From the IMG/VR virus record IMGVR_UViG_3300009375_000045, positions 1 through 20,698 of that record: 20,698 nucleotides of DNA; one strand, given 5' to 3'. The notes under the pieces are model-generated. The model searched no databases. It saw nothing but the letters and a program-made list of their open reading frames with translations, and was not told the DNA's origin. The position numbers were made by a program, and so were the translations under genes. Shown in pieces: positions 2,246 through 20,698 of the stretch (position 1 is the stretch's first letter; every line of letters starts with the position of its first letter). Origin of the DNA: a virus.

Positions 2246-3961
2246 CTATCTTAAAGCGGGGGTAACACCGCGCCCTTGAAGGGCATTGACCAGCATCTGC
2301 CTTTCAAAGTCCTCATCCCCGATACGGCCTCCTTGGAATAACTCGTTGCCGAAGGCTCTTGCCTTTGGTGCATCGACATTACCAAGTAAACTCTTCGCCA
2401 ACCCCGCGCCCTTGCCTGCGTAATACGCCGCCTCACCCACCAAACGCGGAGAAGACGCAGCTAATGCCGGAAGTGCCCAGGGACTTACAAAGCCTGAGCC
2501 CACACCCACGCCCAGCCCGAGGGCTGACGGCGCAAGTGAGACGCCTTGTATTCCCCTTGGCGCGGGGCTGCTTAAAGCCTGCCCTGCGAGTTTCTCTCTT
2601 ATATTTGGCGCACCGGATTCCGCTAAAACATCAACCTGCTTCACGCGGTTTCCATAATTTGTGTTGGCATTGTTCCGCATGACGGATTGCAGTTTTCTCA
2701 ACGCCTGATCCGTAGAGGCTTTACGGCCCCCAGACAATGATCGTTCAATTTCACGAATTTGAGTCGCCGCCGTTTCGTAATCCTTCATCACCTTTGCATA
2801 TTCCGGGGCTTGCTTGGTGACTTCATTCTTAATCGCCGCGTAAACCTGGTCTGCAACCATGCGCCCCTGGCTCTTGGTCATGGGGTCGTAACCCGTCCCT
2901 ATATCGCCAATTTTCTGCTTGAGGGCGTCCAGACCTTCCGGGGTGTGAAATTCAGCCGGATCGAGCAATTTCCATTCATCAAAGACCTTGCGAATTTCAT
3001 CTACAGCGCCCGCCGCATTTGGCCTAATCTGCTGGCCTTTATATGTTCCGACATTGGCAATTTTCTCAAAAGCCGCATCGATAGGCCCAAAGTCTATAAC
3101 CGTTTTGTCGGCGGCCACCCCCGCCATACCCTCCCGATAAGCGGCGTTTTTCTGTTGCTTCATTTGAGCTAATGCCGTGTGAAGATCGGTTACGGCGTCT
3201 TCCATATCTGCCGCGCCACGGAGATTGCCCTGAAAATCAGCGGCCTTTTCTCCCCCCTCTGCACCAGCAGCAGCAGCCCGCTTAATTGGCTCTCCTCCTG
3301 TCCCTGTTGCCGCGCCGAGAACATGGGCAGCCCCGGCCCCAAGATACTTACCGCCCTTGCCTGCTGTCCTCCCGGCTATAACAAGTGGGTCTATGGCCTT
3401 CCCTGTTGACTGCATCGCTTGGCCGGTTTTTTCAACTGCCATTCCCGTAGGGCCAACCTTTGGCGGAATGAATCCTGTCCTGCCAGCCTTTGCAACCATG
3501 CCAGGGGCTTTAGCCGCCAACATTCCACCGCCCGTCAGAACGGCGCTGGCATCGGCCAACATACCCACCGGGTCATTGGCGAGGGTGTTTTTAATGCCCT
3601 CGATGGAGCCGTAACGGTCCATGAAGAATTGCCCCACCGCGTCAGCCATTTGTTCATCTGCCTGCTCACCGGGGATTAGCTTTTGGATAATTCCCAAGCC
3701 AAGCTGTCCGAGGGTCTTGGCGGTGTCAATGGGATGGATAATAGGCTGAACAATATCCTCACCGAATTGCACAGCACTTGAACCGAAATTACCCGCCGCC
3801 CCAGAGAAGGCTTCTCCCCATGACATAGAATCAGAAACCCCGCCTTCGGGGGCGGGGCTGTCAATCAATCCTCTGGTGCGAGCTTCGTTAAGGATTTCCT
3901 GTTTGTCGGGGGGTAAAATGCCTCGCCTTTCGGCCTCAAGCATTGCCTCTAACTTCTTCAT
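2246..3961 (-). CDS. Putative internal virion / DNA-ejection protein
   Basis: A 571-residue protein whose ATG at 3961 overlaps the preceding stop by ATGA. The first 35 residues are charged and helical (RRGILPPDKQEILNEARTRG). Residues about 50-230 are rich in Gly and Ala with hydrophobic, possibly membrane-active stretches such as LADASAVLTGGGMLAAKAPG and GKYLGAGAAHVLGAATG. The middle (about 240-440) is helical and charged, with coiled-coil character. Residues about 465-530 are again Ala/Gly/Pro-rich. This mixture, with its place after the nozzle, suits the ejection proteins that podoviruses release into the envelope to carry DNA across. There is no visible transglycosylase or peptidase motif. 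The function is inferred from context and composition. A terminator follows. Confidence 0.65.
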   Translation of the reverse strand: MKKLEAMLEAERRGILPPDKQEILNEARTRGLIDSPAPEGGVSDSMSWGEAFSGAAGNFGSSAVQFGEDIVQPIIHPIDTAKTLGQLGLGIIQKLIPGEQADEQMADAVGQFFMDRYGSIEGIKNTLANDPVGMLADASAVLTGGGMLAAKAPGMVAKAGRTGFIPPKVGPTGMAVEKTGQAMQSTGKAIDPLVIAGRTAGKGGKYLGAGAAHVLGAATGTGGEPIKRAAAAGAEGGEKAADFQGNLRGAADMEDAVTDLHTALAQMKQQKNAAYREGMAGVAADKTVIDFGPIDAAFEKIANVGTYKGQQIRPNAAGAVDEIRKVFDEWKLLDPAEFHTPEGLDALKQKIGDIGTGYDPMTKSQGRMVADQVYAAIKNEVTKQAPEYAKVMKDYETAATQIREIERSLSGGRKASTDQALRKLQSVMRNNANTNYGNRVKQVDVLAESGAPNIREKLAGQALSSPAPRGIQGVSLAPSALGLGVGVGSGFVSPWALPALAASSPRLVGEAAYYAGKGAGLAKSLLGNVDAPKARAFGNELFQGGRIGDEDFERQMLVNALQGRGVTPALR

Positions 3962-4209
3962 AAATCACCCCACATGTTATCGTTCTTTCGTGGTAAAAGT
4001 CCCTGCCTTGCACACCACCCTTGGTCATATTCGGGGAAGATTCCCCGTTCCCGCGCCTCAAACAGATACGGAAGAATTGACCTGTCCAGCTTGCCTAAGC
4101 ATTCAGCGCCGAGAATTACATAGGTTCTCGGGTCGTCTTCCGGCTTCTCGGGTGGCGGAGAGGCAGCCAAGGTCAAAAGGACAGGCGTTATCTTCAATAA
4201 TGGCGTCAT
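3958..4209 (-). CDS. Small protein between two ejection-protein genes
   Basis: An 83-residue reading frame joined to both neighbours by 4-base ATGA overlaps, which is strong support that it is translated. It begins MTPLLKITPVLLTLAASPPP, a short hydrophobic stretch that could be a weak signal or membrane anchor, followed by a Pro/Glu/Asp segment and a soluble part containing YVILGAECLGKLDRSILPYL and the acidic-basic tail KNDNMWGDL. Two cysteines are present. I do not recognise a family. Its place between two probable ejection proteins suggests a virion or assembly part, but this is only context. Confidence 0.65.
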   Translation of the reverse strand: MTPLLKITPVLLTLAASPPPEKPEDDPRTYVILGAECLGKLDRSILPYLFEARERGIFPEYDQGWCARQGLLPRKNDNMWGDL

Positions 4210-5627
4210 TGAATAACATTCAGAATTTCATCATCGGTCATTTTTTTGACGCTACCATTCCCCGGCTGTCCTGTGCCAGTGGTTTGGGGTTGGGGTTTTT
4301 CAGGAACACCGCTAAGGGAATACTGGTTGCCGAATATCTTTTCATAGTTGGTAACGATATTCTGGCTGTGGCCTAAGCGCCGGTCAATCATCTCCAAGGC
4401 ATCGCCCCAGACCGCCATACGCTCAGGGTGGCTTAATTCCGCGCTGCCTTCCAATGCGCGGAGAACCTCACCTTCTCGCTGGGTGAACTGCGCCCCGAGA
4501 GATGCGCGCAGTTTGGAAGCCCACTGCTTGCCGACAAGAGTCTCCATAAGATTGGTTGCGTGTGCGCCCTCTTTCCCAAAACCAGGCAGATAATCTGCAC
4601 CAGGAATATTACGAGAGGCCCAAGTGCGTTCGTTCGCTGTTGGCCCCTCAAAGGCTGTAGGACTCAACTCCATCGCCTTCACCAAAGATGCGCGTGCCTC
4701 TTCGAAACCCGGCATCTTGTCAACGTGAGTCGCATAAAGCTGCTCCTGTCTCGCGGTGGGGCGCTGCGTTCCCTGCACCATCTCTGGTCCCGCTGAAATG
4801 ACTGGAGAAGTGGGTTGCGGCTGTTGTGGTGCCTCTTGTCCCCCCCCCGCCTCTATCGGGGGTGGCGCACCCTGTGGGGCGGGTTGCTGTGGCCGAATTT
4901 GTGCCGGAATTTTCATAAACCCTTGCGGCGTGTTGACATATCTCGGCTCTGAAAGGTATTTAACCGCGCTTTCGTAGCGTGGGTCGGATGGGCCGTTGTT
5001 GTATGCATCCCACATATTGCCCTCGACAGAGTTACCGAAGTCAGGTCTTTCCTCCTGAAGTTGGGCGCTGGGGTCAACCCTGGAAGCATCATCTGTATAT
5101 ATCAGATAACCCGCTGCGTTTTTCGCCGTGGGACGTTTTTGCGGCTTCTGAGGCGGAAATGCCTTATTCTGCTGCTGAAACAGATACAATTCCTTCTGCC
5201 GTTCCGTGTCCTGCTTGCCCTGCAATGCCTTCACAATTATTGCGATTGCCCCTTCATAATCCCCCGAAGCCGCAAGGCTATGGCCGTATTCAATCATGGG
5301 ATCGCCCGGCACCGGGTTAGCATCCGACATAGCCCCGTTATCCGCCATTTGGTTGCCGCCCAAACGCTCCACAAGGCCCGCATATTTGGACCGTGCCGCC
5401 TCCGTCTGTTCGCGCTGCTTGTTCTCGTATTTCTCCTGTGCCTTGTTCGAGACAAAGGCCGAGGCAATATCTCCTACCGCCGAGTTAATACCCTCCCCGA
5501 CATTCCTGATCTGGCCGTTGCCTGAACGCAATGCTTCGGCAAGCCGTGAAAGCTGGTCATTCGCCATCTGCTTTTGCATGTCGGGGCTGAGAACAACCGG
5601 GGGGGCTTCCTGTTGAATAATTGCCAT
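4206..5627 (-). CDS. Putative internal virion protein
   Basis: A 473-residue protein starting at ATG 5627 in a TAATG overlap with the gene upstream. Residues about 15-105 are helical and Gln/Glu-rich (LSRLAEALRSGNGQIRNVGE, then NKAQEKYENKQREQTEAARS). Residues about 245-290 are a Pro/Gln/Gly linker (PQQPAPQGAPPPIEAGGGQE). The C-terminal part from about 300 is a folded helical region with TWASRNIPGADYLPGF and FTQREGEVLRALEGSAEL, which recalls helical segments seen in podovirus ejection proteins. A Gly/Pro/Thr tail ends in MTDDEILNVIQ. No catalytic motif is visible. It stands between two other ejection-type genes, so an internal virion role is likely but unproved. A run of nine G residues encodes part of the Gly-rich linker. 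Confidence 0.6.
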   Translation of the reverse strand: MAIIQQEAPPVVLSPDMQKQMANDQLSRLAEALRSGNGQIRNVGEGINSAVGDIASAFVSNKAQEKYENKQREQTEAARSKYAGLVERLGGNQMADNGAMSDANPVPGDPMIEYGHSLAASGDYEGAIAIIVKALQGKQDTERQKELYLFQQQNKAFPPQKPQKRPTAKNAAGYLIYTDDASRVDPSAQLQEERPDFGNSVEGNMWDAYNNGPSDPRYESAVKYLSEPRYVNTPQGFMKIPAQIRPQQPAPQGAPPPIEAGGGQEAPQQPQPTSPVISAGPEMVQGTQRPTARQEQLYATHVDKMPGFEEARASLVKAMELSPTAFEGPTANERTWASRNIPGADYLPGFGKEGAHATNLMETLVGKQWASKLRASLGAQFTQREGEVLRALEGSAELSHPERMAVWGDALEMIDRRLGHSQNIVTNYEKIFGNQYSLSGVPEKPQPQTTGTGQPGNGSVKKMTDDEILNVIQ

Positions 5628-8352: not shown

Positions 8353-9212
8353 TAGAACGTGATACTCCCTGATCCTGTCCACTCGTAAATACGATAACCA
8401 CCTGAAACAGTGTAAGTCGGTGAACCTGTCGTGCTGTCGGCTGGGGCGTAAGTGTCGGCGTATCGGATAATCACGACGCCCGAACCGCCTGCCGCGCCGT
8501 TCCCGCCCGTACCGTCCGTGGGGTGACCGAAGCCACCGCCGCCACCGCCTGTATTTGCTGTTCCAGCAACCTGGTCGTCATTTGTGCCGCCAGCACCGCC
8601 ACCGCCTGAACCCCCAACACCGCCTGTGGTCGAACCACCGCCTGAGTAACCACGGCCACCACCGCCTCCTCCTCCACGGGTGACAGATGAACCGTTAATC
8701 GAGGATGCAGAACCGGCACCGCCAGCCCCGCCGTCTGTTGAGGTTGCAGCCCCACCGACAGCACCCGCACCACCACCACCGCCCGCAGCCTGGGAGGCAT
8801 TATGACCAGCACCACCCGCATTGCCTTGGCCTGATGGAGTGGCTGCGCCAGCGGCGGAATTATAAGAACCGCCACCACCGGAACCGCCAGCCGTGCCAGC
8901 CGTGCTAGGCGTAGCACCACCACCGCCTCCGGTAGAGGTAACAGAATCAAAAACCGAATTGGAACCGTTTGAGCCGTTGTTATCGCCTGTGCCACCAGCA
9001 CCGCCACCGCCTACAGTCACGGTTAAGGGTGTGCTGTCTGCAACCGATAAGCCTGTAGCAGTTTTGTAACCTCCTGCGCCACCGCCACCACCGCCCGGAG
9101 ATGAACCACTAAGCGCACCGCCACCAGCACCACCAGCCACCACAAGGTATTCAACCTCAGAAGGGGCGACTAGCGCACCGCCATAGCGGTAAGGATTAAG
9201 TATAACCCCCAT
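8352..9212 (-). CDS. Glycine-rich tail adhesin-like protein
   Basis: A 286-residue protein with ATG 9212 in a TAATG overlap. It starts MGVILNPYRYGG, a short anchor-like motif seen in other phage tail proteins, then EVEYLVVAGGAGGGALSGSS. Residues about 27-250 are dominated by runs of Gly with Ala, Ser, Thr and Asn (several GGGGGG tracts), and the segment closes with GAAGGSGVVIIRYADTYAPA. The last 30 residues are a small beta tail, YTVSGGYRIYEWTGSGSITF. This is the layout of the glycine-rich domain found in tail tips and adhesins, where Gly-rich segments can pack as polyglycine II helices and their loops bind the receptor. No chaperone gene is evident. Receptor binding is inferred from the family, not shown. 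Confidence 0.8.
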   Translation of the reverse strand: MGVILNPYRYGGALVAPSEVEYLVVAGGAGGGALSGSSPGGGGGGAGGYKTATGLSVADSTPLTVTVGGGGAGGTGDNNGSNGSNSVFDSVTSTGGGGGATPSTAGTAGGSGGGGSYNSAAGAATPSGQGNAGGAGHNASQAAGGGGGAGAVGGAATSTDGGAGGAGSASSINGSSVTRGGGGGGGRGYSGGGSTTGGVGGSGGGGAGGTNDDQVAGTANTGGGGGGFGHPTDGTGGNGAAGGSGVVIIRYADTYAPADSTTGSPTYTVSGGYRIYEWTGSGSITF

Positions 9213-10246
9213 TATGTCTTGTAACCGATTAGGTAAACTTTCAGGCCCGCACCAGCAACCGTCGAGCCGATCTGGTCTATATCAACCGTAATCTCCGCAT
9301 CGTCAGCTAGGGACGCGTCGGAAATCACCGCCGGAGTTGCCGCCGTGGTGGAAGTTTTCTCAGAGGCATCAATAGTCAGCTTGGTGGAGAGGATTGTTAC
9401 ACCGCCCTCGTTAATATCCACCGTCAATGTCGCGCCCGTTGGGGCCGTGGTTGCGGAACACCGAACCGCCGTCAGCGTGAAGGCGTAGGGCATACGGAAT
9501 GTTGCCTTGGCCGTTCCTGTAGTCAGGGCTGTAGTTTCGTCTGAACAGGCAATTGAGATGTGTTCTGTGGGGGCCGTTGATCCCGTCCTAGTGGCGTTGT
9601 CCGCATCGTAAGCCTGGACCGTAACCCCTATATCGGCGTCAACAACAATTGTGGCGTCGTAAGCTTGGACATCAGTTCCAATGACAAGCCCGAGCGTGGT
9701 TCTTTGTGCCGCCGCACTCGCATCATCCAGCAATGCAGCACCCGCCGCCGTAATCGTATAGGTGGAATCCTTGAGGGTCTTTCCACCCGTTCCGTCAAAC
9801 AGGGCAATAGCCGAATCCGTGGCACTCGCGGGGCCGGAAACGTCACCCGAACCCGCCAGATCGGAAAGCAAAACCTTTTTCAAGGTGGAGGCGGAATCGT
9901 CATAAGTCATAACGTAATCCGCACCCGAATCCGGCGACCCGTCAGCCGTCAAACTGCTTATATCAACGGCCAGCGTGCCGGTTGTGGAGATTGTGCCACC
10001 CGACAGCCCCGTTCCTGCCGTAACGCCCGCCACCGCGCCGCTAACGCCGCCAGAGAAGGTCGCTACGCCCGTAACAGCCAAAGTGCCGGTGGACTTAACT
10101 CCTGTCGTCGAAACCTGTAATGCAGAAGCCGTCCCCTCCCCGTCCTCCACATCTCTCAGGGTTGTATCAATACCGGCATTGGAATTGGAAACCTGCACTA
10201 AATCCTTATAGCTGTTTCCGGGCTTCTGCCCTGTAAGCGCGGTCAA
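9212..10246 (-). CDS. Tail fibre-like structural protein
   Basis: About 344 residues. I chose TTG 10246: its TTGA overlaps the stop of the adaptor gene and a GGAGG lies 6 bases upstream, which is ideal; the alternative TTG at 10261 would lie upstream of that site. The N-terminus reads LTALTGQKPGNSYKDLVQVS. The next part is Gly/Ser/Thr-rich beta repeats (TGTLAVTGVATFSGGVSG, TAGTGLSGGTISTTGTLAVD), typical of fibre shafts. The C-terminal 120 residues (HISIACSDETTALTTGTAKA, FRMPYAFTLTAVR, LTIDASEKTSTTAATP, DIDQIGSTVAGAGLKVYLIG) form a conserved beta domain I recall from many phage appendage proteins. It precedes the Gly-rich adhesin gene, and the two may form one appendage. Confidence 0.75.
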   Translation of the reverse strand: MTALTGQKPGNSYKDLVQVSNSNAGIDTTLRDVEDGEGTASALQVSTTGVKSTGTLAVTGVATFSGGVSGAVAGVTAGTGLSGGTISTTGTLAVDISSLTADGSPDSGADYVMTYDDSASTLKKVLLSDLAGSGDVSGPASATDSAIALFDGTGGKTLKDSTYTITAAGAALLDDASAAAQRTTLGLVIGTDVQAYDATIVVDADIGVTVQAYDADNATRTGSTAPTEHISIACSDETTALTTGTAKATFRMPYAFTLTAVRCSATTAPTGATLTVDINEGGVTILSTKLTIDASEKTSTTAATPAVISDASLADDAEITVDIDQIGSTVAGAGLKVYLIGYKT

Positions 10247-10980
10247 ACCAAATCCTCCCAATTATCGTTCGTCCAGTCCGCCCATGTATTGAGTGTCACC
10301 GTCGCGACATCCTGCACCCCGTCATTCTTTGGTGACGCCATCCCCAAGGTTGGGGCAGAACCAGACCTCCCCAACGCCTTATCAACCCTTTTTTGGTATG
10401 CCCTCTCGTCGGGTTCCCATTCAAAGCCCTTGCGCTTCAACCAACGCCAGATAATGCCGTCCGCCATAAGGCTTTCAGAGATTTTCCCGGTATCGTCATC
10501 CGCCGTCCATGCGGTTTGCCCAACCGAACCAGATGATTGGCACCACTGGTCCGAGATATATTCAAAGGCCACCGTCTCCACACTCGTCGGTGTTGGCGTG
10601 ATGATGATGTTCCCGCCCTGGATACGAAACCGCCCGAAGGGGTAATTGGTTCCTGACGCCTGGTCCGCCTGGTATCCCTGCGGAGAAAGCGGCCCTCCCA
10701 CCGGACGTCTTGTGGTGCGGTTCCAGATCGTGTCATTCAGCATCCGGTCGTAATCAGAGGCCACCGTGGACAGCGCGTATGACGCCGTTCCGTTGGCGGT
10801 GCTGAATGTCTCCTCGGTGATTAATTCCTGCCATGGACCACGCTCTGCCAGTTCCGCGCCTTCCTTGTTGGCAAGGCCCAGCAGCGTTCTCACGGTCTGG
10901 TCGGTTGAGTCGATAATGGCGGTAGGACGCGCAACGCCTATTTCGTCGGCTACGTCCTGCAACATGGAAAGAAGCGTCAT
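10243..10980 (-). CDS. Head-to-tail adaptor protein (SU10/T7-adaptor-like)
   Basis: A 245-residue protein with ATG 10980 in an ATGA overlap. The N-terminal helices (MTLLSMLQDVADEIGVARPT, LLGLANKEGAELAERGPWQE) followed by LITEETFSTANGTASYALST and a beta part with SDYDRMLNDTIWNRTTRRPV are the usual build of phage adaptor proteins. Later segments FRIQGGNIIITPTPTSVETV and AFEYISDQWC, and the helical region with WRWLKRKGFEWEPDERAYQK, also fit. In this family twelve copies form a ring that joins the portal to the tail nozzle. Length and place (after the head genes, before the tail genes) agree. The exact subgroup is not certain. Confidence 0.8.
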   Translation of the reverse strand: MTLLSMLQDVADEIGVARPTAIIDSTDQTVRTLLGLANKEGAELAERGPWQELITEETFSTANGTASYALSTVASDYDRMLNDTIWNRTTRRPVGGPLSPQGYQADQASGTNYPFGRFRIQGGNIIITPTPTSVETVAFEYISDQWCQSSGSVGQTAWTADDDTGKISESLMADGIIWRWLKRKGFEWEPDERAYQKRVDKALGRSGSAPTLGMASPKNDGVQDVATVTLNTWADWTNDNWEDLV

Positions 10981-13831: not shown

Positions 13832-14887
13832 TTAGAACTGGGCCGCGATTTCCTCCCTGAGAGAAGGTTTCGGACCCGCCGGGGATTCGCCCGATGGTGA
13901 ACCTGTAACGCTGGACGAGGCATTGGCCGCATCCGCCGCTTTCTTTTTCACGGCTTGCGTGTTGGATTCGCTTACAGCCTTCTTTTCGTTATCGAGAAGG
14001 GCCTGCCTTGTTTCGGTGTTTCCCCATACCGCCCTGTCGTAAGCCAATTCCAGAACCTCCTTGTTGGGTTTGTTCGGATCGGTGGCGCGGATTTGCACAA
14101 TAATGCCTTCCATGTCCTTCACAACAGCCTCGTAATGGGGGCGCAACAATTGTCCGTTGGCGTCCTTCTCACTGGCAAAGGCGTTAATTTCCCCCTCCAC
14201 GGAGGCAAACGCGGCTTGCTGTCTGTCGTTCTGGTCACGTTGCATCATCGCCCGCAAGTCAGACACTTCGCGTTGTAGCGCGGTGGTCTGCGGGTCGGCG
14301 TATTCCTGTGCTTCGGTTAAGGTGTTGATGTCAACGGCGGCTAATTGTGATAGCCCCGTGATAATGTCGGCCTTCTGCTGCGGTGTCCCGTGTTCCAGCG
14401 TGTGAACCATGTTTAACGCCCCCTGGAATGCAACGAGAGGGGTGTCGCCCTTCGATTGCAGATAGGGGATATACGGTGTCACGATCTGCTGGAACTCGTC
14501 CGCGACCTTGGCCTTGTCGTCCATTGTCGTTTTGAGTTGCGTTACCCCGCTATCCATTTCCTCCTCACGCTGGAGGATATAGTCACGGGCCTCTTTCGGC
14601 AGGGCGCTGAATACCTCTTTGTATTCTGCTTTCCATGAGGCGGGCGCTTGTGGCGCTTCCTCTACTGCCTCCGGCTCGGCTTGTGGCTCGTCGCCGGTTG
14701 ATTCTTCCGCCGGTTCTTCGGCGGGTGGTTCTTCTGCTTCGCTTTCAGGCTCCTCGTCCTTGGCCGCAAACCGCCCCTTGTCGTCACGGGTCGGGCCTTC
14801 TTCCGCCGGTTCCGCATCGAAAGCGTCGGTTAATGCCTCCCGGAGATCATCCCCGGTATCTTCAATTTCTTCGTTTTCTTCTTCCAT
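13832..14887 (-). CDS. Capsid scaffolding protein
   Basis: About 351 residues. I chose ATG 14887, with AGGAG about 9 bases upstream and an acidic N-terminus MEEENEEIEDTGDDLREALT; the in-frame GTG at 14953 would add 22 basic residues and has no clear ribosome-binding site. Residues 1-85 are Glu/Pro/Ala-rich and disordered. Then comes APASWKAEYKEVFSALPKEA with RDYILQREEEM, a motif I recognise from phage scaffold proteins. The middle is helical, with a coiled-coil part around TALQREVSDLRAMMQRDQND. The C-terminus has Ser/Gly/Pro spacers and ends KPSLREEIAAQF, the usual small helix that contacts the capsid shell. It lies 40 bases before the capsid gene, as expected. Confidence 0.85.
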   Translation of the reverse strand: MEEENEEIEDTGDDLREALTDAFDAEPAEEGPTRDDKGRFAAKDEEPESEAEEPPAEEPAEESTGDEPQAEPEAVEEAPQAPASWKAEYKEVFSALPKEARDYILQREEEMDSGVTQLKTTMDDKAKVADEFQQIVTPYIPYLQSKGDTPLVAFQGALNMVHTLEHGTPQQKADIITGLSQLAAVDINTLTEAQEYADPQTTALQREVSDLRAMMQRDQNDRQQAAFASVEGEINAFASEKDANGQLLRPHYEAVVKDMEGIIVQIRATDPNKPNKEVLELAYDRAVWGNTETRQALLDNEKKAVSESNTQAVKKKAADAANASSSVTGSPSGESPAGPKPSLREEIAAQF

Positions 14888-14960
14888 TGCTCCATTCTCC
14901 TGTGGGCTTTTGTTGAAAGTGCGGTGGGGTGCGCGGGAGCGGCGCGCAAACACCCACCTG

Positions 14961-15292: not shown

Positions 15293-17297
15293 TCATCTGC
15301 TCCTTGATTCTTTGATTTCCCTCAATCTCAGCCGCCTTCAATTCCATGTTGCCGACCATCTCCTGCTCTCGTAACGCCATGTCTGCCTGTTGGCCCTGCG
15401 CCTTCAGGGCCATGTCAGCCTCGGCCTTCTGCATTTCCGCGCTCTTGTCGCCGTGAACGGCGTCCAGTTCGGCTTTAAGCTGTTCGACGACCTGTTGGGC
15501 CTCCATCAGGCGCGGGTCGTCCTGGGGCTGTGAGAGGCGTTCCTGCAATCCCTCCATAGCCCTGTCAAAAGCCGCCTCCATGGTGCGCCCGGTCTTAAAT
15601 CCCCTCACGGTGAACATCATCATTTCACCGACCAGCGGGGCCATCTCAGGGGCGGCCTGCATTAACGGGAAGGCGCGCTCGATAAACGACGACATGGCCT
15701 CGATAAACTGGATGCGGGCTTCCTTTTCCGCCTGTTCGTCGGGCTGGATGGTTGAATCGGTTTCAATGTCGATGCGGAAAGACCGCTTTACCTCGTTCCG
15801 CAACAGGTCAATGACTTGGGGAAAGAGTTGCATATCTTCTTCATCCATCAGCTTGACGCCCGACATTTCTGCAATGCGCTCGGGGTCAAACTTCTCGGCA
15901 ATCAGTTCCGCCTTCATGCGGATAATATCGCGGGCAAACCGCTGAACCTCCGTCTGCCTGTCCCTTATGCGGAGAGAGGCAAACTGTCCCTTTAACCGTT
16001 GCGCTGTCGCTGTCTCGGAGGCTTGTGACGTGCCCCGGATAATGTCCGATATACCGGTAATCTCGAACAACGCATCCTTCGCCTTGTCCCGTGCGTCATA
16101 CAGCCCCGCCAGAACCGTGGCGATCTGGTCAATGGGGAGATAGTCAATAACCCCTTTCAACCCGCCCTTCTCGGCAAAGGTCGCCCATTGATCCACGGGA
16201 ACAAGAACATTCTCCCGGCCCTTGATGATCTGCCCGAGATTCGCCGCGACGCTTGAATCATACACACCGGCAATTTTCAGGCTTTCAAGAAGCAGGTTGA
16301 TCCGCGCCGTCATTTCGTCAATTTCGAGCACCTGGTCCTGATACAGAACATAATCGGGAATGGGGTTGAGGCTGTCTGTCGTCAAGGTGGCGTATAACGG
16401 TCGCGGACAAGGGAAAAACCCCCTGAGATTCAGCGGGTCTTTCTTCCTGTCGAGCAATTCCTTGTGGTCACGGGCAATCCAGTAAACGGTCTTGGTGGTC
16501 TTGTCCCATATCTCCCAAACCGTCGCTTTCTTGAAGGCTTCATTCTGCTTGCCTTCGTCATCGAGTGCCGATTTGGGCTTATGATCGAGGGGAACCTTCT
16601 TGCCCTTGTCGCCAAATCGTTTCACCAGTTCATCACGGGTCATAAAGGCCCGCTTGGCAACCCACCTCACCTCACCCCAATACCGCGCCGGGTTGTGGAG
16701 GAAATCCATCCAGTGAATGTAATCGCAAACCGCTTCCTCGGACGTTACCTGCTGGTATGGCTCCTCCTGGGTAAAGGCCCGTCCATCCTCGCCATATTGC
16801 GCCCCCTCGGGAAAGCCTGTGCCGCCCGCCATAACATCGGCAACATCAGGCTCCAGATACTCAGGCTCCGGGGTGATGTCCTCAAACTCGGCATTGTATC
16901 GCACCCATGCCGCGCCCCGTGCGGTCAGAAGGTAATCGGTAACGCAAGAGCGCATAACCGTGTCGAAGTCGTAATTCTCCACCGCATAGCCGGTCGCCCT
17001 CTCAAGTATCTCAGAGGCGGCGCGTCCTACCGGGTCGCTGTCCTTGAATTTACGGGTTATCTCAGGATTGGGGGTCGCCGCATATAAAGCGGGCTTTAAG
17101 GTTTCGACGTTCGACCACAGAAGATTGAACTTGCGTCCCCCCTTCTCACTTGAGGGGCGCTCATCACGATACCGCTTGATAACCTTCTTGGCCTGTCCCT
17201 CCCACTTCTCCCGGTCCTTCTCGGCCATGCGGATTTCGATATCCCAACGGTCATATTCACTCTTGGCGTCGGCTACCGTCTCAAGGGGTTCGTTCAA
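15273..17297 (-). CDS. Portal protein (P22-type)
   Basis: About 674 residues. I chose TTG 17297, whose TTGA overlaps the terminase stop, with GAGG 9-10 bases upstream; a longer frame from 17408 would run back through the coding end of terminase and give an unlikely His/Arg-rich leader. Residues about 36-75 (KKVIKRYRDERPSSEKGGRK, FNLLWSNVETLKPALYAATP) are the conserved portal N-terminal block. The middle holds DYIHWMDFLHNPARYWGEVR and VLYQDQVLEIDEMTARINLL. The stretch GTSQASETATAQRLKGQFAS followed by LRIRDRQTEVQRFA is a strong family marker. The last 80 residues are a Gln/Ala/Glu-rich coiled coil like the P22 portal barrel. The dodecameric ring would be the DNA gate and the base for terminase and adaptor. 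Confidence 0.9.
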   Translation of the reverse strand: MNEPLETVADAKSEYDRWDIEIRMAEKDREKWEGQAKKVIKRYRDERPSSEKGGRKFNLLWSNVETLKPALYAATPNPEITRKFKDSDPVGRAASEILERATGYAVENYDFDTVMRSCVTDYLLTARGAAWVRYNAEFEDITPEPEYLEPDVADVMAGGTGFPEGAQYGEDGRAFTQEEPYQQVTSEEAVCDYIHWMDFLHNPARYWGEVRWVAKRAFMTRDELVKRFGDKGKKVPLDHKPKSALDDEGKQNEAFKKATVWEIWDKTTKTVYWIARDHKELLDRKKDPLNLRGFFPCPRPLYATLTTDSLNPIPDYVLYQDQVLEIDEMTARINLLLESLKIAGVYDSSVAANLGQIIKGRENVLVPVDQWATFAEKGGLKGVIDYLPIDQIATVLAGLYDARDKAKDALFEITGISDIIRGTSQASETATAQRLKGQFASLRIRDRQTEVQRFARDIIRMKAELIAEKFDPERIAEMSGVKLMDEEDMQLFPQVIDLLRNEVKRSFRIDIETDSTIQPDEQAEKEARIQFIEAMSSFIERAFPLMQAAPEMAPLVGEMMMFTVRGFKTGRTMEAAFDRAMEGLQERLSQPQDDPRLMEAQQVVEQLKAELDAVHGDKSAEMQKAEADMALKAQGQQADMALREQEMVGNMELKAAEIEGNQRIKEQMNAGQNA

Positions 17298-18613
17298 ATC
17301 CTGCCTCGTTCCTCTGGTTTCGCCGTTTTCCAGGCGTCGTTCATGGTCATAGTCTGCATGGTGCGTGGTTCTTCCGGCTTGGCCGGTTTGGGGGCAATCT
17401 CCCGCCACCCCATTGCGAGGTATCGGAAGGCGTCCGCCGCATGGCTTGTCCAGTCATGCAGGGGGCGATCCCTGAACACATTGTTCTTTTCGTCAAAATC
17501 CGCCCGGTATTGGCGCAGTGCCTCGATACCGTCCCGGCATTTCACCTCGTCGAAATACATACGGGGCAACAAAACCCTTGCGGCGTTAATACCGTCATCA
17601 ATCTTGTGGGCAGGTATCAGGCGCGGCTTGCGGCCCAAACCCTGCAAGGTTTCAATCCTTGTGCGCCCGGTTCCCAATTCCCGCACCTTGGCGTCATGGG
17701 GAACCCAGTCAAACTTGTATTTATAAGGCTTGCTCTCAAGCACCTTGGCGTAATGGCCGAGGCTAAAACCACTGTTCTCGTAGAAATCAATGACGCGGAT
17801 TTCATTGCCCGCCGCCTGCCAGAACCAGATAGCAGTTGAATCCCCTATCCCCAAATCCCAGACCGTGTGGACTTCCAGTTCCGGGTCATAGGGAACATCA
17901 CATATCCGCCTGTCCCGTTCCGCGTCGGCTATCTCCTTGCCGAAATAAGCCCCGGCAATCGCCGCCTCAAAGGAACACTCATATTCCTGGGCGTATTGCC
18001 CCGGCGTCATGTCCTTACGAGCCAGACCCAGCTCCTCGTCGTCGATCAGACTGGTTTCAGAGGCCCGCAGCATCATGTCGAACCACTTGGGGTCTTTCAC
18101 AGCGCCGTCATACACATCGAAAAAGGCGTTGCGCCCTTTCGGGGTGCCGATAAACACCGCCCAGCCCTTGCGATCCGACAAGGCCGGTCTGACAACCTCC
18201 CCCCATGTGCGGGGGTTCATGTCGGCGTATTCGTCGAGAATCACCCCGTCAAGATAGATACCGCGCAACGTGTCCGGGTTGTCGGCCCCGTAGAGCCGCA
18301 CACGCCCCCCGTTCCAGAAATCTATACGGAGTTCCGACTCATTGGCTTCGGCCAGCCCTGCCGCCATTAACGGCGCAACCGCCTCCTTTAGATACGTCCA
18401 GGCAACATCCTTGGCCTGCTTGTAAAGGGGCGCGATATAGGCAAAGCGCGGGTTCTTGTTTTCACAGCGTAGAGCGAAGTCCACAAGATCGTGAACGCAC
18501 GCCACGGTCTTTCCCGCCCGCCTGTGGCAGACAAGGGCGGCGAACCGTGTTTCCCTCTTGTGAAATGTTACAAACTGTTTCCGTGGCCGATAGCCGAGAT
18601 CAATCTGCGTCAC
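17294..18613 (-). CDS. terL: Terminase large subunit (packaging ATPase-nuclease)
   Basis: A 439-residue protein from GTG 18613, overlapping the small-subunit gene by 14 bases, with no clear ribosome-binding site, so translational coupling is likely. The Walker A-type motif is VCHRRAGKT (about 28-36), the Walker B motif is GVILDE (about 123-128), and FIGTPKGRN (about 154-162) is the coupling motif. The nuclease half has VWDLGIGDSTAIWFWQ (about 251-266), in which D253 is a probable metal ligand, and HDWTSHAADAFRYLA (about 387-401), in which D394 fits the last conserved acid. All core motifs look intact. It pumps DNA into the procapsid through the portal and cuts the concatemer. The mechanism (headful or cos) cannot be read with confidence. 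Confidence 0.95.
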   Translation of the reverse strand: MTQIDLGYRPRKQFVTFHKRETRFAALVCHRRAGKTVACVHDLVDFALRCENKNPRFAYIAPLYKQAKDVAWTYLKEAVAPLMAAGLAEANESELRIDFWNGGRVRLYGADNPDTLRGIYLDGVILDEYADMNPRTWGEVVRPALSDRKGWAVFIGTPKGRNAFFDVYDGAVKDPKWFDMMLRASETSLIDDEELGLARKDMTPGQYAQEYECSFEAAIAGAYFGKEIADAERDRRICDVPYDPELEVHTVWDLGIGDSTAIWFWQAAGNEIRVIDFYENSGFSLGHYAKVLESKPYKYKFDWVPHDAKVRELGTGRTRIETLQGLGRKPRLIPAHKIDDGINAARVLLPRMYFDEVKCRDGIEALRQYRADFDEKNNVFRDRPLHDWTSHAADAFRYLAMGWREIAPKPAKPEEPRTMQTMTMNDAWKTAKPEERGRI

Positions 18614-18938
18614 GCGGAACGCCGGTGAATACCGACACGGACCCGGAATGCTCTACGTCCTGCTTTTCAGACCACCGCATCCTGGCCTTTGTCCACCAGA
18701 TTAAAGCCGTTGTGTCGCCGCTTGTGGCCTTCTGGTAAAGGGTCTGCGCTATCTTGGCGTTTGCTTTTGTGGCCGCCGTGTCCAGTTCTTCGCGGTAGTG
18801 TTCCCGTAAGGTCTTGGGCGCAACGCCTATCACCACCGCAATATCATCTTGCAGGATACCGCCCGCCGCCATAGCCTCTACCGTCTTGCGGCTTTGGTCT
18901 GTAGGTTCGTGCTTGGGCCTTCCACCTTTATCTTTCAT
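18600..18938 (-). CDS. terS: Terminase small subunit
   Basis: A 112-residue protein with ATG 18938 in an ATGA overlap with the Mom-like gene. The N-terminus MKDKGGRPKHEPTDQSRKTV leads into a helix-turn-helix with GGILQDDIAVVIGVAPKTLREHY (quoted in part: DDIAVVIGVAPKTLREHY). A second helical part (ANAKIAQTLYQKATSGDTTA, LIWWTKARMRWSEKQ) matches the oligomerisation segment I know from many small terminase subunits. The size is within the usual range. It would recognise the packaging site and bring the large subunit to it. The place directly before the large subunit supports this. Confidence 0.88.
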   Translation of the reverse strand: MKDKGGRPKHEPTDQSRKTVEAMAAGGILQDDIAVVIGVAPKTLREHYREELDTAATKANAKIAQTLYQKATSGDTTALIWWTKARMRWSEKQDVEHSGSVSVFTGVPRDAD

Positions 18939-19645
18939 TCGGCACCCGTTGATTTTGGAGCGTGGCGGTCAGTGCTGCCCTGCCGCTGTGCCGCTGGAAC
19001 GGCCATCGCCTGCTTGCCACGCTTAATGCCTTTGTACATGCCCGCACCCGCTTCCTCAATTGCGCTGAATGGCAATTCAGGGACGGTCAGCCTTTCTCGG
19101 CACGCCTTATCTAGAAAATAGATATACCTCATCTGGAAACCGGGCAATGTTTCGGAGCCGGAAAAATCCCTCTTGCTCGTCCCGTGCTTCGCCGCAACGC
19201 TACCATCTGCGAGACGCACAATGGTACTGTTCTTCTTCAACCCACAAAGGACAAAGCCGCTGGCTCTGTAGATAGTCCCGTCCCCGCATTGAGTGCCGTC
19301 CGCGAAGGATACCACCCACTTGATCTGCGGATATTGTCTTTTGATAAGCCGAAAGGCCACCCCTATTGCGCGGCTCTCGCTGTTACGCGGCAGCCTCTCT
19401 CCGAAGGCCATGCGATTTAGTTCCAGCATGTCGTTCCATTTGGCTCCGGCGACCAGACCCAACAAATTGCGCCTATCAATTGGAGGGCCAAACTGCATAG
19501 CACCCTCTAAGCGCCCATCAAGGAACACGCCCATATGCAGCTGACTATTCTGCACCACCTTGCCGCTGTAATGGATACGCCTAACAAGGGCCGCCGCGTC
19601 TTTTGCGGATATTGGCTCGACACGCAAATCTTTAGCCGACGCCAT
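18935..19645 (-). CDS. Mom-like DNA modification enzyme (adenine acetamidation family)
   Basis: About 236 residues. I chose ATG 19645, which overlaps the ParB-like gene by 14 bases; starting at 19717 would add 24 residues and an 86-base overlap. Conserved elements of the Mu Mom family, a GNAT-like fold, are visible: HYSGK (25-29), LELNRMAFGERLP (74-86), NSESRAIG (88-95), SFADG (113-117), IYRASGF (125-131) and PGFQMRYIYFLD (168-179). The His-Tyr pair, the Arg, the Asp of SFAD and the Tyr of IYRASGF correspond to residues known to matter in Mom. Mu Mom turns adenine into a carbamoylmethyl (acetamido) adenine that blocks host restriction. The C-terminal 35 residues are basic and Gln/Ala-rich. 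It sits between the ParB-like gene and terminase. The exact modification is not shown. Confidence 0.82.
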   Translation of the reverse strand: MASAKDLRVEPISAKDAAALVRRIHYSGKVVQNSQLHMGVFLDGRLEGAMQFGPPIDRRNLLGLVAGAKWNDMLELNRMAFGERLPRNSESRAIGVAFRLIKRQYPQIKWVVSFADGTQCGDGTIYRASGFVLCGLKKNSTIVRLADGSVAAKHGTSKRDFSGSETLPGFQMRYIYFLDKACRERLTVPELPFSAIEEAGAGMYKGIKRGKQAMAVPAAQRQGSTDRHAPKSTGAE

Positions 19646-20264
19646 ATTGCCCCACAAACATCTCACAAACGCGGGACAAAGCGTTCCCGTTCCCGTTTTC
19701 GTTTGGTGAGTCAACAAACTCGCCCATCTCTTTGGCTATACGCAAGGCGTTAGAAACACTGTCGGCCTGCTCGTCGTGAAGTGTAAACGTCATTTGCTGG
19801 AAAGGTGACTTTTCACCATCCGGGAGGTCCGGGTATTCATCAATTGGCGTTGGGTTTAATGCGTCTAATTCGCCTTCATCGAAGCCAAGGGCTCCAATGT
19901 CAAACCCAAGTGCATCTAACTCGCCGATCTCACAGCGCAACAAATCCAAATCCCACCCGGCGTTCAGGGCCAGCTTGTTATCAGCAATAACCAGGGCTTT
20001 GCGCTGCGCCTCGGATAAATGGTCAAGCGCGATACAAGGCACATCATCCATGCCAAGTTTCTGCGCCGCCAAAAGCCTGCCGTGGCCAGCGATAATTCCC
20101 CGATCCCCGTCAATCAACAAAGGGTTGGTAAAGCCAAACTCCTTAATGCTGGCCGCTATCTGCGAAACCTGTTGCTCGCTGTGCGTCCGGCTGTTGTTGA
20201 TATACGGAATCAGGTCAGAAACCGCGATATACTCAATTTCCTTTTTATCCACGGTAAAAACCAC
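19632..20264 (-). CDS. ParB/sulfiredoxin-fold domain protein
   Basis: A 210-residue protein from GTG 20264 with GGAG 10 bases upstream. Residues about 10-100 form a ParB-like domain: IAVSDLIPYINNSRTHSEQQ, ASIKEFGFTNPLLID and the key loop GIIAGHGRLLAAQKLG, with GHGR at 60-63, then HLSEAQRKALVIADNKLALN. Similar phage domains are often fused to a DNA methyltransferase; here no methyltransferase follows. Instead residues about 105-140 hold a Leu/Asp/Gly repeat (LDALGFDIGALGFDEGELDA), and the C-terminus (FQQMTFTLHDEQADSVSNAL, NENGNGNALSRVCEMF) is a conserved tail I recall from comparable phage proteins. The gene runs into the Mom-like gene, so a shared modification role is inferred. The biochemical activity (CTPase, nuclease or DNA binding) is unknown. 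Confidence 0.85.
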   Translation of the reverse strand: MVFTVDKKEIEYIAVSDLIPYINNSRTHSEQQVSQIAASIKEFGFTNPLLIDGDRGIIAGHGRLLAAQKLGMDDVPCIALDHLSEAQRKALVIADNKLALNAGWDLDLLRCEIGELDALGFDIGALGFDEGELDALNPTPIDEYPDLPDGEKSPFQQMTFTLHDEQADSVSNALRIAKEMGEFVDSPNENGNGNALSRVCEMFVGQYGVG

Positions 20265-20445
20265 GTTTAATCTGCTCCGTCTTTCCTCCGGGGTGTCCCG
20301 TCAGTCTTGGTTGATTTGATCCCTCGTAAATCTGCTCCGGGTCGTATTCGATTGATTTACCCCCCTGGTGTATCCGTGCAATCTCCCGCTTCCATTCCTC
20401 TAGATCGTCGAAGTCTTTGGGGATTAGCTTTATGTGGTCTTGCAT
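20245..20445 (-). CDS. Small protein at the head of the operon, function unknown
   Basis: A 66-residue frame with ATG 20445 that overlaps the ParB-like gene by 20 bases. It is charged and helical at first (MQDHIKLIPKDFDDLEEWKR) and ends with a Gly/Lys/Arg tail (HPGGKTEQIKRGFYRG). I do not recognise the family. No ribosome-binding site is evident in front of it; two mini-ORFs end close to its start, so it may be translated by coupling. If it is real it is the first full gene of the late block seen here. Confidence 0.55.
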   Translation of the reverse strand: MQDHIKLIPKDFDDLEEWKREIARIHQGGKSIEYDPEQIYEGSNQPRLTGHPGGKTEQIKRGFYRG

Positions 20446-20459
20446 TCAGGTTGTTTCAT

Positions 20460-20483
20460 TTATGCGCCGTCGAGTCCGTCCAT
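20460..20483 (-). CDS. Possible 7-residue leader peptide
   Basis: ATG 20483 is preceded by GGAG at a 7-base distance and encodes MDGLDGA before a stop. The TAAATG at its end opens a second mini-ORF (MKQPECKTT, 20430-20459) that overlaps the start of the 66-residue gene. The strong ribosome-binding site has no longer frame to serve, so it may drive coupled translation. Such short frames can also occur by chance. Confidence 0.3.
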   Translation of the reverse strand: MDGLDGA

Positions 20484-20548
20484 GACGATTCTCCAAAAGA
20501 TAACCCCGCAAGCCGGAACCTACATACCTCTTTAAACTGGTGGAGTCG

Positions 20549-20567
20549 TCCGGGCGCCGCCCCCGGA
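20549..20567. repeat. GC-rich inverted repeat in the leader
   Basis: TCCGGG and CCCGGA enclose CGCCGCC. In the minus-strand RNA this would be a stable hairpin without a U-run, between the palindrome at 20578-20597 and the mini-ORFs. It may be part of a structured 5' leader. Confidence 0.45.
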
Positions 20568-20577
20568 GTTTGCCGTT

Positions 20578-20597
20578 AAGATCATTTAACTGATCTT
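20578..20597. promoter_or_regulatory. Perfect 20-base palindromic repeat, possible operator
   Basis: AAGATCA and TGATCTT are separated by TTTAAC. The AT-rich dyad lies between the upstream terminator and the first gene of the block, the usual place for an operator. I see no convincing -35/-10 pair around it, so the promoter is not placed. A weak hairpin is the alternative. Confidence 0.45.
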
Positions 20598-20623
20598 ATT
20601 TGGCCGTTCTACTCGACCCCATG

Positions 20624-20656
20624 AAAAAACCCGGCAGGATTGCTCCGACCGGGCTT
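20624..20656 (-). terminator. Intrinsic terminator upstream of the late block
   Basis: On the minus strand AGCCCGG pairs with CCGGGTT, an inner GGA/TCC pair closes a GCAA tetraloop, and the stem is followed by a run of T. This is a standard Rho-independent terminator and separates an upstream gene from the leader of this block. Confidence 0.78.
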
Positions 20657-20666
20657 TGTGTGCGCC

Positions 20667-20696
20667 TCAAGGGTTTAATCTTGACGCACGAATTAC
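20667..20696 (-). CDS. Possible 3' end of an upstream gene (partial)
   Basis: One minus-strand frame entering at the right edge reads VIRASRLNP and stops at TGA 20669-20667, 11 bases before the terminator. The spacing is typical for the end of a gene. Another frame stays open through the terminator to about 20597, so the choice is tentative and no function can be given. Confidence 0.3.
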   Translation of the reverse strand, partial: VIRASRLNP

Positions 20697-20698
20697 AT

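What the first reader, a model, noticed from the sequence alone, without database searches (positions are those of the whole stretch)
18935..20264. ParB-like plus Mom-like pair transcribed directly into the terminase genes
Seen: a free-standing ParB/sulfiredoxin-fold protein (GHGR at 60-63) with no methyltransferase, overlapping a Mom-like enzyme, which overlaps the small terminase subunit by ATGA. Known: Mu Mom makes a bulky modified adenine that blocks many restriction enzymes, and Mu needs the separate Com regulator. Inference: here the ParB-like protein may replace a methyltransferase partner, either guiding Mom to DNA or regulating it, and linkage to terminase would time modification to just before packaging. 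No com-like gene is visible.
Basis: partly seen in the sequence, partly recalled or inferred. Interest (0 to 1): 0.72.

Follow-up and report, generated by a model that had tools for sequence, protein, structure and literature searches.

The report
ParB-type partner for phage Mom enzyme
This phage carries a DNA-disguising enzyme of the Mom family together with a ParB-like protein whose conserved C-terminal tail is nearly always found right before this branch of Mom, which suggests that phages plug different DNA-modifying enzymes into a common ParB module near their DNA-packaging genes.

Summary
In detail: a 210-aa ParB-like gene (GHGR at 60-63) overlaps a Mom gene by 14 nt, and Mom overlaps the small terminase gene by ATGA. 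Mom is firmly assigned (PF25680; Mu Mom crystal structure, Z 21.6; residue of the inactive S124A mutant conserved). A viral-contig search by the tail alone (best 80 of 484) gave 77 loci with Mom next; the other 3 contigs end within 254 nt. Of 168 distinct viral Moms of this branch, 166 have the tail; near-copies of Mu Mom 0 of 32, four more distant named phages 0 of 4. ParB domains are exchanged while tail and Mom stay together; two loci have tail+Mom without ParB. Related ParB domains are fused to methyltransferases or precede other DNA-modifying enzymes. Best reading: ParB is a swappable DNA-engagement module and the tail its Mom adaptor. This is inferred: a covariation test found no contact-like signal, and adjacency alone could explain co-inheritance. 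A Com-like regulator is the main rival. Chemistry and any timing by terminase linkage are untested.

The parts
19632..20264 (-). ParB-like protein with C-terminal tail (210 aa, GTG start)
   Evidence: AF2 model mean pLDDT 90.7
19857..20243 (-). ParB/sulfiredoxin-fold domain, residues ~8-136
   Evidence: fold match to Noc 7ng0 over residues 8-99, Z 13.6, 91 aligned, rmsd 1.4
20076..20087 (-). GHGR P-motif (nucleotide-pocket motif), residues 60-63
   Evidence: sequence; 39 of 45 aligned relatives keep Arg, 6 have Thr
19656..19817 (-). C-terminal tail, residues 150-203 (TFTLHDEQ ... NENGNGNAL), proposed Mom adaptor
   Evidence: no Pfam or PDB match by sequence; helices 164-179 and 191-207
19632..19645 (-). 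14-nt overlap of ParB end and Mom start (likely translational coupling)
   Evidence: overlap in 151 of 164 non-redundant pairs
18935..19645 (-). Mom family DNA-modification enzyme (236 aa)
   Evidence: PF25680, phrog_1384, Mu Mom 8bv8 Z 21.6
19373..19375 (-). Ser91, equivalent of the residue mutated in the inactive Mu Mom S124A structure
   Evidence: invariant in 42 of 42
19568..19573 (-). His25-Tyr26, equivalents of Mu Mom H48-Y49 (numbering of the Mu record)
   Evidence: invariant in 42 of 42
19028..19090 (-). C-terminal Mom extension (LPFS.I.E.GAGMYKG), typical of tail-linked Mom
18600..18938 (-). terminase small subunit
   Evidence: phrog_309 E 2.4e-20
17294..18613 (-). terminase large subunit
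   Evidence: PF03237, phrog_2
20245..20445 (-). 66-aa ORF of unknown function just upstream, overlapping ParB by 20 nt
   Evidence: no Pfam or NCBIfam match, one weak PHROG match E 0.037

Best explanation
A two-gene DNA-modification module, probably translated as a coupled pair and placed directly in front of the packaging genes. Mom is the catalytic subunit (by family most likely adding the Mu-type carbamoylmethyl group to adenine; chemistry recalled, not tested). The upstream protein is an adaptor: its N-terminal ParB-fold domain, a nucleotide-binding fold, engages phage DNA, and its C-terminal tail holds Mom, so that Mom is carried on or along the phage genome before packaging. In sister systems a ParB domain is joined covalently to a methyltransferase; here the tail takes the place of that covalent link. 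Shown: gene pair, families, folds, the near one-to-one tail-Mom association in the loci sampled, ParB-domain exchange. Inferred: physical tail-Mom contact, NTP-dependent loading on DNA, timing before packaging, chemistry.
For: (1) ParB in 82 of 82 loci first examined (80 nearest of 598 viral Mom loci, the window's own copy, cultured phage Y8A). (2) Search by tail alone: best 80 of 484 viral loci; 79 have ParB fused to the tail (the other is cut by the contig start), 77 have Mom; the 3 without end 83-254 nt after the tail. 62 of the 80 have a tail not identical to one, and 59 of these have Mom. (3) Over together, 166 of 168 distinct viral Mom sequences have the tail upstream; L267 starts at Mom and L268 has divergent tails. 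Genome contigs: 62 of 65. Near-copies of Mu Mom: 0 of 32; Mu, pAEv1818, PAN70, P12002L and JeffCo: 0 of 5. (4) Tail more conserved than the ParB domain (52% vs 41% mean pairwise identity, 45 sequences) and follows Mom better: Spearman 0.40 vs 0.26, difference 0.14 (0.055-0.217), 164 triplets. (5) Exchange: L134/L239 tails differ 7%, ParB domains 69%. (6) L335 and L338: tail+Mom without a ParB domain. (7) ParB domains fused to N6/N4 methyltransferases in 79 of 80 loci (found with such a fusion as query) and 40 of 80. (8) Y8A carries ParB-Mom-TerS-TerL in order. (9) PMC12704722 (abstract, passages): the ParB fold binds CTP, ATP or GTP in various proteins, Arg->Ala in the P-motif abolishes it, and phage ParB folds are often fused to methyltransferases.
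Against: Tail and Mom are neighbours on the DNA, so co-inheritance could reflect linkage alone. Covariation with clade-preserving shuffles (177 pairs, effective number 125, two cluster cut-offs): the strongest tail-Mom column pairs are not above shuffles (z -1.2 to -0.5), while the strongest ParB-Mom pair is slightly (z 1.6 and 2.6); mean mutual information is above shuffles for both (tail z 2.2 and 6.2, ParB 2.4 and 3.8), which shared descent can also give. No ParB-Mom or tail-Mom fusion among 356 Mom ORFs. Mom genes without ParB, tail or detected Com exist (pAEv1818, P12002L), so no partner is needed for Mom in general. The P-motif Arg is Thr in 6 of 45 relatives, so nucleotide use may not be universal. 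A covalent ParB-methyltransferase link does not prove that ParB positions the enzyme. All lists were capped at the 80 best matches; more distant relatives were not examined.
Confidence: 0.5

Rival explanations
1. The ParB-tail protein is a regulator of Mom, the counterpart of Mu Com: it controls mom expression or holds Mom inactive until late infection, since premature Mom harms the host.
For: Same position and overlap with mom as Com has in Mu; no Com found in the two contigs examined; tail-only ORFs of 106 and 151 aa in L335 and L338 are fairly small, as Com is; [quoted passage not shown] another ParB group with a CPHC (zinc-type) tail precedes a second Mom branch, and Com is a zinc finger protein (PMC6483171, abstract start).
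Against: Related ParB domains are fused to methyltransferases, which points to acting with the enzyme; the window's tail has no Cys pair and showed no likeness to a Pfam family.
Confidence: 0.25
2. The tail is a DNA-binding domain (ribbon-helix-helix-like) that binds a phage site or operator; ParB-tail acts as a site-specific clamp or autorepressor, and Mom is only a neighbour in the operon.
For: Stretch with alternating hydrophobics followed by two helices (alternation by eye); hhalign places CopG and NikR in the expected register (by eye); two tandem ParB-tail genes in a few loci (L323, L328; divergent L268) could form a pair.
Against: hhalign probabilities 0.2-2.1%, not significant; the structure comparison barely tests the tail; the near-exclusive tie to Mom is unexplained.
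Confidence: 0.15
3. The ParB-like protein is a nuclease or nicking enzyme (for example against host or rival DNA) that Mom-modified phage DNA resists, a phage-borne restriction-like pair.
For: A ParB-methylase of Bacillus cereus is reported to nick DNA non-specifically, and other ParB domains are described as DNases/NTPases (passages of PMC5512222).
Against: Does not explain the tail, the ParB-domain exchange or the tail-only loci; the Arg is lost in some relatives.
Confidence: 0.07
4. Chance or hitch-hiking: ParB is an unrelated late gene that sits at this place in many phages.
For: ParB genes sit upstream of terminase with various partners, and in Vibrio phage phi 2 without a recognised modification gene between.
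Against: Tail-Mom tie in loci from several bacterial phyla by record title; in the 159 ParB loci the tail was detected once, next to Mom (L487).
Confidence: 0.03

Closest known systems
Phage Mu Mom (PF25680, PDB 8bv8) with Com
   Same: Same enzyme family and fold (Z 21.6, rmsd 2.4, 188 aligned, 37% identity); the residue mutated in S124A and the H, Y, R, D, Y positions conserved; an overlapping upstream gene.
   Different: Upstream gene is ParB+tail; Com not found; placed before terminase, not near the genome end; lacks the Mu N-terminal extension and has a C-terminal one.
Psychrobacter phage vB_PmaS_Y8A ORF16-ORF17-TerS-TerL (OQ059336)
   Same: Same gene order and ParB-Mom overlap; ParB 56% and Mom 60% identical to the window's.
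   Different: ORF17 is annotated as hypothetical and ORF16 is discussed as a chromosome-partition protein (PMC10434257, passages); the phage also has a second, divergent Mom elsewhere.
Phage ParB-N6/N4 methyltransferase fusions (Psychrobacter phage pOW20-A, Verrucomicrobia phage P8625)
   Same: ParB domain 60% and 66% identical, upstream of terminase.
   Different: Enzyme is fused and is a methyltransferase; no NxNxNGNA tail.
ParB/Noc/Spo0J CTPases, SerK, sulfiredoxin
   Same: Same fold and a P-motif Arg.
   Different: Different C-terminal part; linked to a DNA-modifying enzyme.

Membership tests
Mom (methylcarbamoylase) family | Sequence profile PF25680 over its cut-off | tested here: met
   173.2 bits vs cut-off 27.1
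Mom (methylcarbamoylase) family | Fold of Mu Mom (GNAT-like) | tested here: met
   8bv8 Z 21.6, next GNAT 13.3
Mom (methylcarbamoylase) family | Residue of the inactive S124A mutant and other conserved residues | tested here: met
   S91 and H25, Y26, R78, D116, Y126 align with Mu Mom and are invariant in 42 of 42
Mom (methylcarbamoylase) family | Makes N6-carbamoylmethyl adenine in DNA | not testable with these tools
   needs nucleoside mass spectrometry
Mu-type mom operon with Com | Com zinc-ribbon gene (PF10122) | tested here: not met
   no match in the window record (20.7 kb) or the 30.3-kb contig of the same locus; Mu positive; both are fragments
ParB/sulfiredoxin fold | Sequence profile | tested here: met
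   PHROG ParB families to E 5e-59; Pfam ParB_N 25.9 bits, just under 26.3
ParB/sulfiredoxin fold | Fold | tested here: met
   Noc 7ng0 Z 13.6 over residues 8-99
ParB/sulfiredoxin fold | P-motif Arg | tested here: met
   GHGR present in the window; Thr instead in 6 of 45 relatives
Canonical ParABS partition protein | Adjacent parA and parS sites | not tested
   no ParA or parS search was made
ParB-methyltransferase fusion | Fused methyltransferase domain | tested here: not met
   Pfam scan finds only ParB_N; protein is 210 aa
Ribbon-helix-helix DNA-binding domain (tail) | Profile similarity to Arc/Mnt/CopG/NikR | tested here: inconclusive
   hhalign probability at most 2.1%; helix-helix layout compatible

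The most novel reading that the evidence does not exclude
Phages use the ParB fold as a general, exchangeable DNA-engagement platform for DNA-modifying enzymes, often placed in front of the packaging genes. The enzyme is plugged in either by fusion (N6/N4 methyltransferases) or through partner-specific C-terminal adaptors: the NxNxNGNA tail for one Mom branch, a CxxC zinc-type tail for another Mom branch and a C5 methyltransferase, and a beta-alpha-beta-like tail for ABC-GNAT proteins, Dam-type methyltransferases and, with more varied tails, glycosyltransferases. ParB, possibly through its nucleotide switch, would load or slide these enzymes along phage DNA before packaging.
Probability: 0.35. 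Interest if true: 0.8.

Novelty: new variant of a known kind. Interest (0 to 1): 0.6.

Why it matters
Why phages carry ParB domains next to or fused with DNA-modifying enzymes is called unknown in recent work (PMC12783734, passage). A tail tied to Mom, kept while the ParB domain is swapped, gives that question a small testable handle, and predicts unannotated Mom-type modification in phages such as Y8A and in many uncultured ones.

Tried and rejected
Tail as a known domain: 9 weak Pfam hits, each in 1 of 20 members, best E 0.029; PDB profile hits only at E 0.36 or worse. Tail as RHH: hhalign not significant; no RHH row appeared in the structure second look, whose rows span mainly residues 3-128 and barely test the tail. 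Natural ParB-Mom or tail-Mom fusion: none in 356 Mom ORFs. Residue covariation tail-Mom: no contact-like signal. A tblastn of the tail against 50,697 phage records found one record, Y8A. Tail in sampled genomes: 2 of 398, 2 of 294 and 1 of 297; 3 of these 5 are the centre genomes, chosen because they hold it; one (G548, L349) is, by eye, a chance match in a chemoreceptor-like protein; one (G1012, L514) is ParB-tail-Mom. Mom in 398 genomes of one phylum: 5 hits; only the centre genome has ParB+tail in the ~1 kb flanks read; two are Mu-like by their N-terminal extension, one is a partial match in a long frame, one was not recovered by my own profile. Promoter scan of 17000-20698: none found, shuffles give 2.0, so no promoter is claimed. 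The ParB-domain tree is poorly resolved (131 columns, 110 rows): Mom label 24 changes against a shuffled mean of 37.2, so the label is clustered too, and only 3 changes are forced by strong branches. An automatic P-motif count over 164 sequences was too crude to use; the 45-row alignment is quoted instead. The C-terminal-extension motif was too strict at first and was loosened. One script stopped with an error after its useful output. An early count '70 of 72 further viral loci' included contigs already held; one search recounts distinct sequences.

Papers: no report of the ParB-Mom pair or the tail was found by searches; this covers only the open-licence library, and two papers wanted (Iyer et al. 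2013; Karambelkar et al. 2020) are not held, so earlier mention is possible. Two papers naming both ParB and Mom do not describe the pair in the passages seen.
Full report
What is there. The window is an IMG/VR virus record of 20,698 bases. On the minus strand, a 210-aa ParB-like gene (19632-20264), a 236-aa Mom gene (18935-19645), the terminase small and large subunits (18600-18938, 17294-18613), portal and major head protein genes run in one direction, with overlapping ends at each junction from ParB to TerL. A longer contig (30,255 bases, L002) carries an identical Mom.

Mom. PF25680 at E 7e-51 and phrog_1384 at E 3e-49. The AlphaFold2 model (mean pLDDT 87.5) matches the crystal structure of phage Mu Mom S124A (8bv8) at Z 21.6, rmsd 2.4, 188 residues, 37% identity; the next GNAT reaches 13.3. 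The serine changed in that entry falls on Ser91 of the window protein, invariant in 42 of 42 aligned relatives, as are His25-Tyr26, Arg78, Asp116 and Tyr126. Relative to Mu Mom it lacks an N-terminal extension of about 23 residues and has a C-terminal extension with an LPFS..GAGMYKG motif. By a simple motif this extension is seen in 228 of 240 distinct complete tail-linked Mom ORFs; of the 12 misses, by eye, 6 are motif variants, 5 broken or shortened ORFs and one (L332) differs. It is also seen in 5 of 24 Mom ORFs without a detected tail: L279, L333, L268 and two in L267. By eye these five belong to the same branch: two Bradyrhizobium loci with decayed surroundings, a locus whose ParB tails are divergent, and one whose Mom starts at the contig edge. 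The extension may thus mark the branch rather than a docking site.

ParB and its tail. The AlphaFold2 model (pLDDT 90.7) has the ParB fold (Noc 7ng0 Z 13.6 over residues 8-99; sulfiredoxin and SerK follow lower). PHROG families agree; Pfam ParB_N falls 0.4 bit short of its cut-off. Residues ~150-203 form a second unit with two helices, Q166, N188 and N194 invariant in 45 of 45 relatives and an N-x-N-x-N-G-N-A motif at least 91% conserved in 164 non-redundant sequences. I found no Pfam or PDB counterpart by sequence. In 45 relatives the tail is better conserved than the ParB domain (52% vs 41% mean pairwise identity), and the P-motif Arg is kept in 39 and is Thr in 6.

How often. All lists are capped at the 80 best. 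The 80 nearest viral Mom loci (of 598; 70 distinct Mom sequences) plus the window's own copy and Psychrobacter phage Y8A all have a ParB homologue (82 of 82), on the same strand in 81 of 81 non-window loci; with the longest ORF starts the two ORFs overlap in 73 of 81, and eight have gaps of 18 to 1,931 nt. A search by the tail alone gave the best 80 of 484 viral loci: 79 have the tail fused to ParB, one is cut by the contig start; 77 have Mom; the 3 without end 83-254 nt after the tail. 62 of these 80 carry a tail not identical to one already seen; 59 of the 62 have Mom, the other 3 being those contig ends. A broader Mom query added 72 loci (58 with a Mom not identical to one): 70 of 72, and 56 of 58, have the tail; L267 starts at Mom; L268 has two ParB genes with divergent tails. 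Over the three searches 166 of 168 distinct viral Mom sequences have the tail. In genome contigs 62 of 65 Mom loci have the tail. 58 of them also have a ParB hit, including L281, whose ParB frame is broken. Four have none: L288 (contig start), L342 (divergent N-terminal part), and L335 and L338, where the tail sits in a short ORF without a ParB domain, the N-terminal parts of the two alike by eye. Without tail: L279 and L333 (Bradyrhizobium) and L340 (contig start). By record title the loci come from Pseudomonadota, Bacillota, Bacteroidota, Verrucomicrobiota, Acidobacteriota, Spirochaetota and others, many of them metagenome-assembled. Contrast: 32 loci with Mom 85-99% identical to Mu's (28 distinct; a 33rd held no Mom ORF) have neither tail nor ParB within 3 kb upstream, and neither was found in the stretches read around Mom of Mu, pAEv1818, PAN70, P12002L and JeffCo (0 of 5). 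In 164 non-redundant triplets the Mom start lies inside the end of the ParB gene in 151, mostly by 14, 8, 4 or 22 nt.

Domain exchange. Over those 164 triplets Mom distances follow tail distances better than ParB-domain distances (0.40 vs 0.26; difference 0.14, bootstrap 0.055-0.217); 519 pairs have similar Mom (under 38% different) and very different ParB domains (over 68%), against 37 with very different tails; the clearest is L134/L239, tails 7% and ParB domains 69% different. This can be read as function or as mere adjacency of tail and Mom on the DNA.

What ParB does elsewhere. Among 110 ParB domains compared, the one most identical to the window's (70%) is fused to an N6/N4 methyltransferase (L377); the nearest by tree path is a Mom-linked one (L069) and the tree is poorly resolved. 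In named phages the window's ParB is 60% and 66% identical to the fusions of pOW20-A and P8625, which also lie upstream of terminase. In Moraxella phage Mcat8 a ParB with a CxxC tail precedes a C5 methyltransferase, a second SAM-enzyme-like gene, another gene and terminase; in Pasteurella phage Pmp13 ParB precedes an ABC-GNAT protein, a gene on the other strand and terminase; in Vibrio phage phi 2 ParB is followed by one gene of unknown role and terminase. In the best 80 of 591 viral loci for the Pmp13 ParB: 40 are methyltransferase fusions by my profile (built from the proteins); 7 have a ParB without the NxN tail followed by a divergent Mom (all 7 with a CPHC tail by eye; PF25680 confirmed in the 4 scanned); one is ParB-tail-Mom (L487); the other 32 include ABC-GNAT partners (phrog_11143 in the 2 scanned, others by eye), a D12 methyltransferase (L447; L489 alike by eye), TET-associated glycosyltransferases (L449, L479), PLP-enzyme-like genes (L510 over, L455 under the Pfam cut-off), other fused methyltransferase-like proteins by eye, and loci cut by contig ends. 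These are nearest relatives of one query, not a random sample. A TerL gene was found within 3 kb downstream in 72 of 124 tail-Mom loci with enough sequence (92 more too short), and within 3.5 kb in 46 of 54 and 19 of 22 loci (25 and 58 too short); detection was by pairwise profiles, so these are lower bounds.

Mechanism. I favour an adaptor: ParB engages DNA, the tail holds Mom. The argument is by analogy with covalent ParB-methyltransferase fusions plus the tail's near-exclusive tie to Mom in the loci sampled. It is inferred. [quoted passage not shown] Some Moms have none of these partners (pAEv1818, P12002L). A residue-covariation test gave no contact-like signal for tail-Mom; the strongest ParB-Mom pair did slightly better. 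The ribbon-helix-helix idea for the tail was not supported.

Literature. Kaljevic et al. 2025 (PMC12704722, abstract and passages) surveyed the ParB fold, with phage methyltransferase fusions and CTP, ATP or GTP binding; the word Mom was not found in its main text. PMC12783734 (passages) notes ParB-domain genes near phage cytosine hypermodification genes and calls their function there unknown. The Y8A paper (PMC10434257, passages) treats the ParB as a partition protein, and the table passage seen goes from ORF16 to ORF18; ORF17 is here identified as Mom. Searches showed no paper describing the pair or the tail; Iyer et al. 2013 and Karambelkar et al. 2020 could not be read.

Verdict. A real, widespread, under-annotated module: a known enzyme family with a partner not described in the papers I could search, and a well-posed but unproven mechanism.

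Noticed in passing
L433, L444, L451, L456, L460, L498, L503: A second Mom branch preceded by ParB proteins with a CPHC-type (zinc-like) C-terminal tail instead of the NxNxNGNA tail; Mu Com is a zinc finger protein too.
   Followed up: partly
L086, L431, L432, L441, L442, L458, L463, L488, L507: ParB with a beta-alpha-beta-like tail (by eye) directly before an ABC-ATPase plus GNAT protein (phrog_11143 in L431 and L507, Pfam in L086, others by eye); possibly another DNA-modification enzyme.
   Followed up: partly
L449, L479, L455, L510: ParB genes directly before TET-associated glycosyltransferases or PLP-enzyme-like genes, families recalled from phage base hypermodification.
   Followed up: no
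L323 (same place as L348/L350), L328, L268: Two tandem ParB-tail genes before one Mom (tails divergent in L268), perhaps a heterodimer.
   Followed up: no
L304/G005; L267: Two Mom genes in tandem.
   Followed up: no
L512 (OQ059336 39393-40157): Phage Y8A carries a second, divergent Mom far from the ParB-Mom pair, without ParB or tail detected in the 3.7 kb read.
   Followed up: partly
window 20625-20660: By eye, a GC-rich inverted repeat followed by T6 on the minus strand, upstream of the ParB operon; it may end an upstream unit (the scan did not list it).
   Followed up: no
L511 (contig of L002, near its end): A 445-aa open frame with a partial N6/N4 methyltransferase match, opposite strand, roughly 10 kb from ParB-Mom.
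   Followed up: no
window 13832-14953, 2246-3961, 4206-5627, 9212-10261: Long ORFs among the structural genes without a PHROG match at E 0.001.
   Followed up: no
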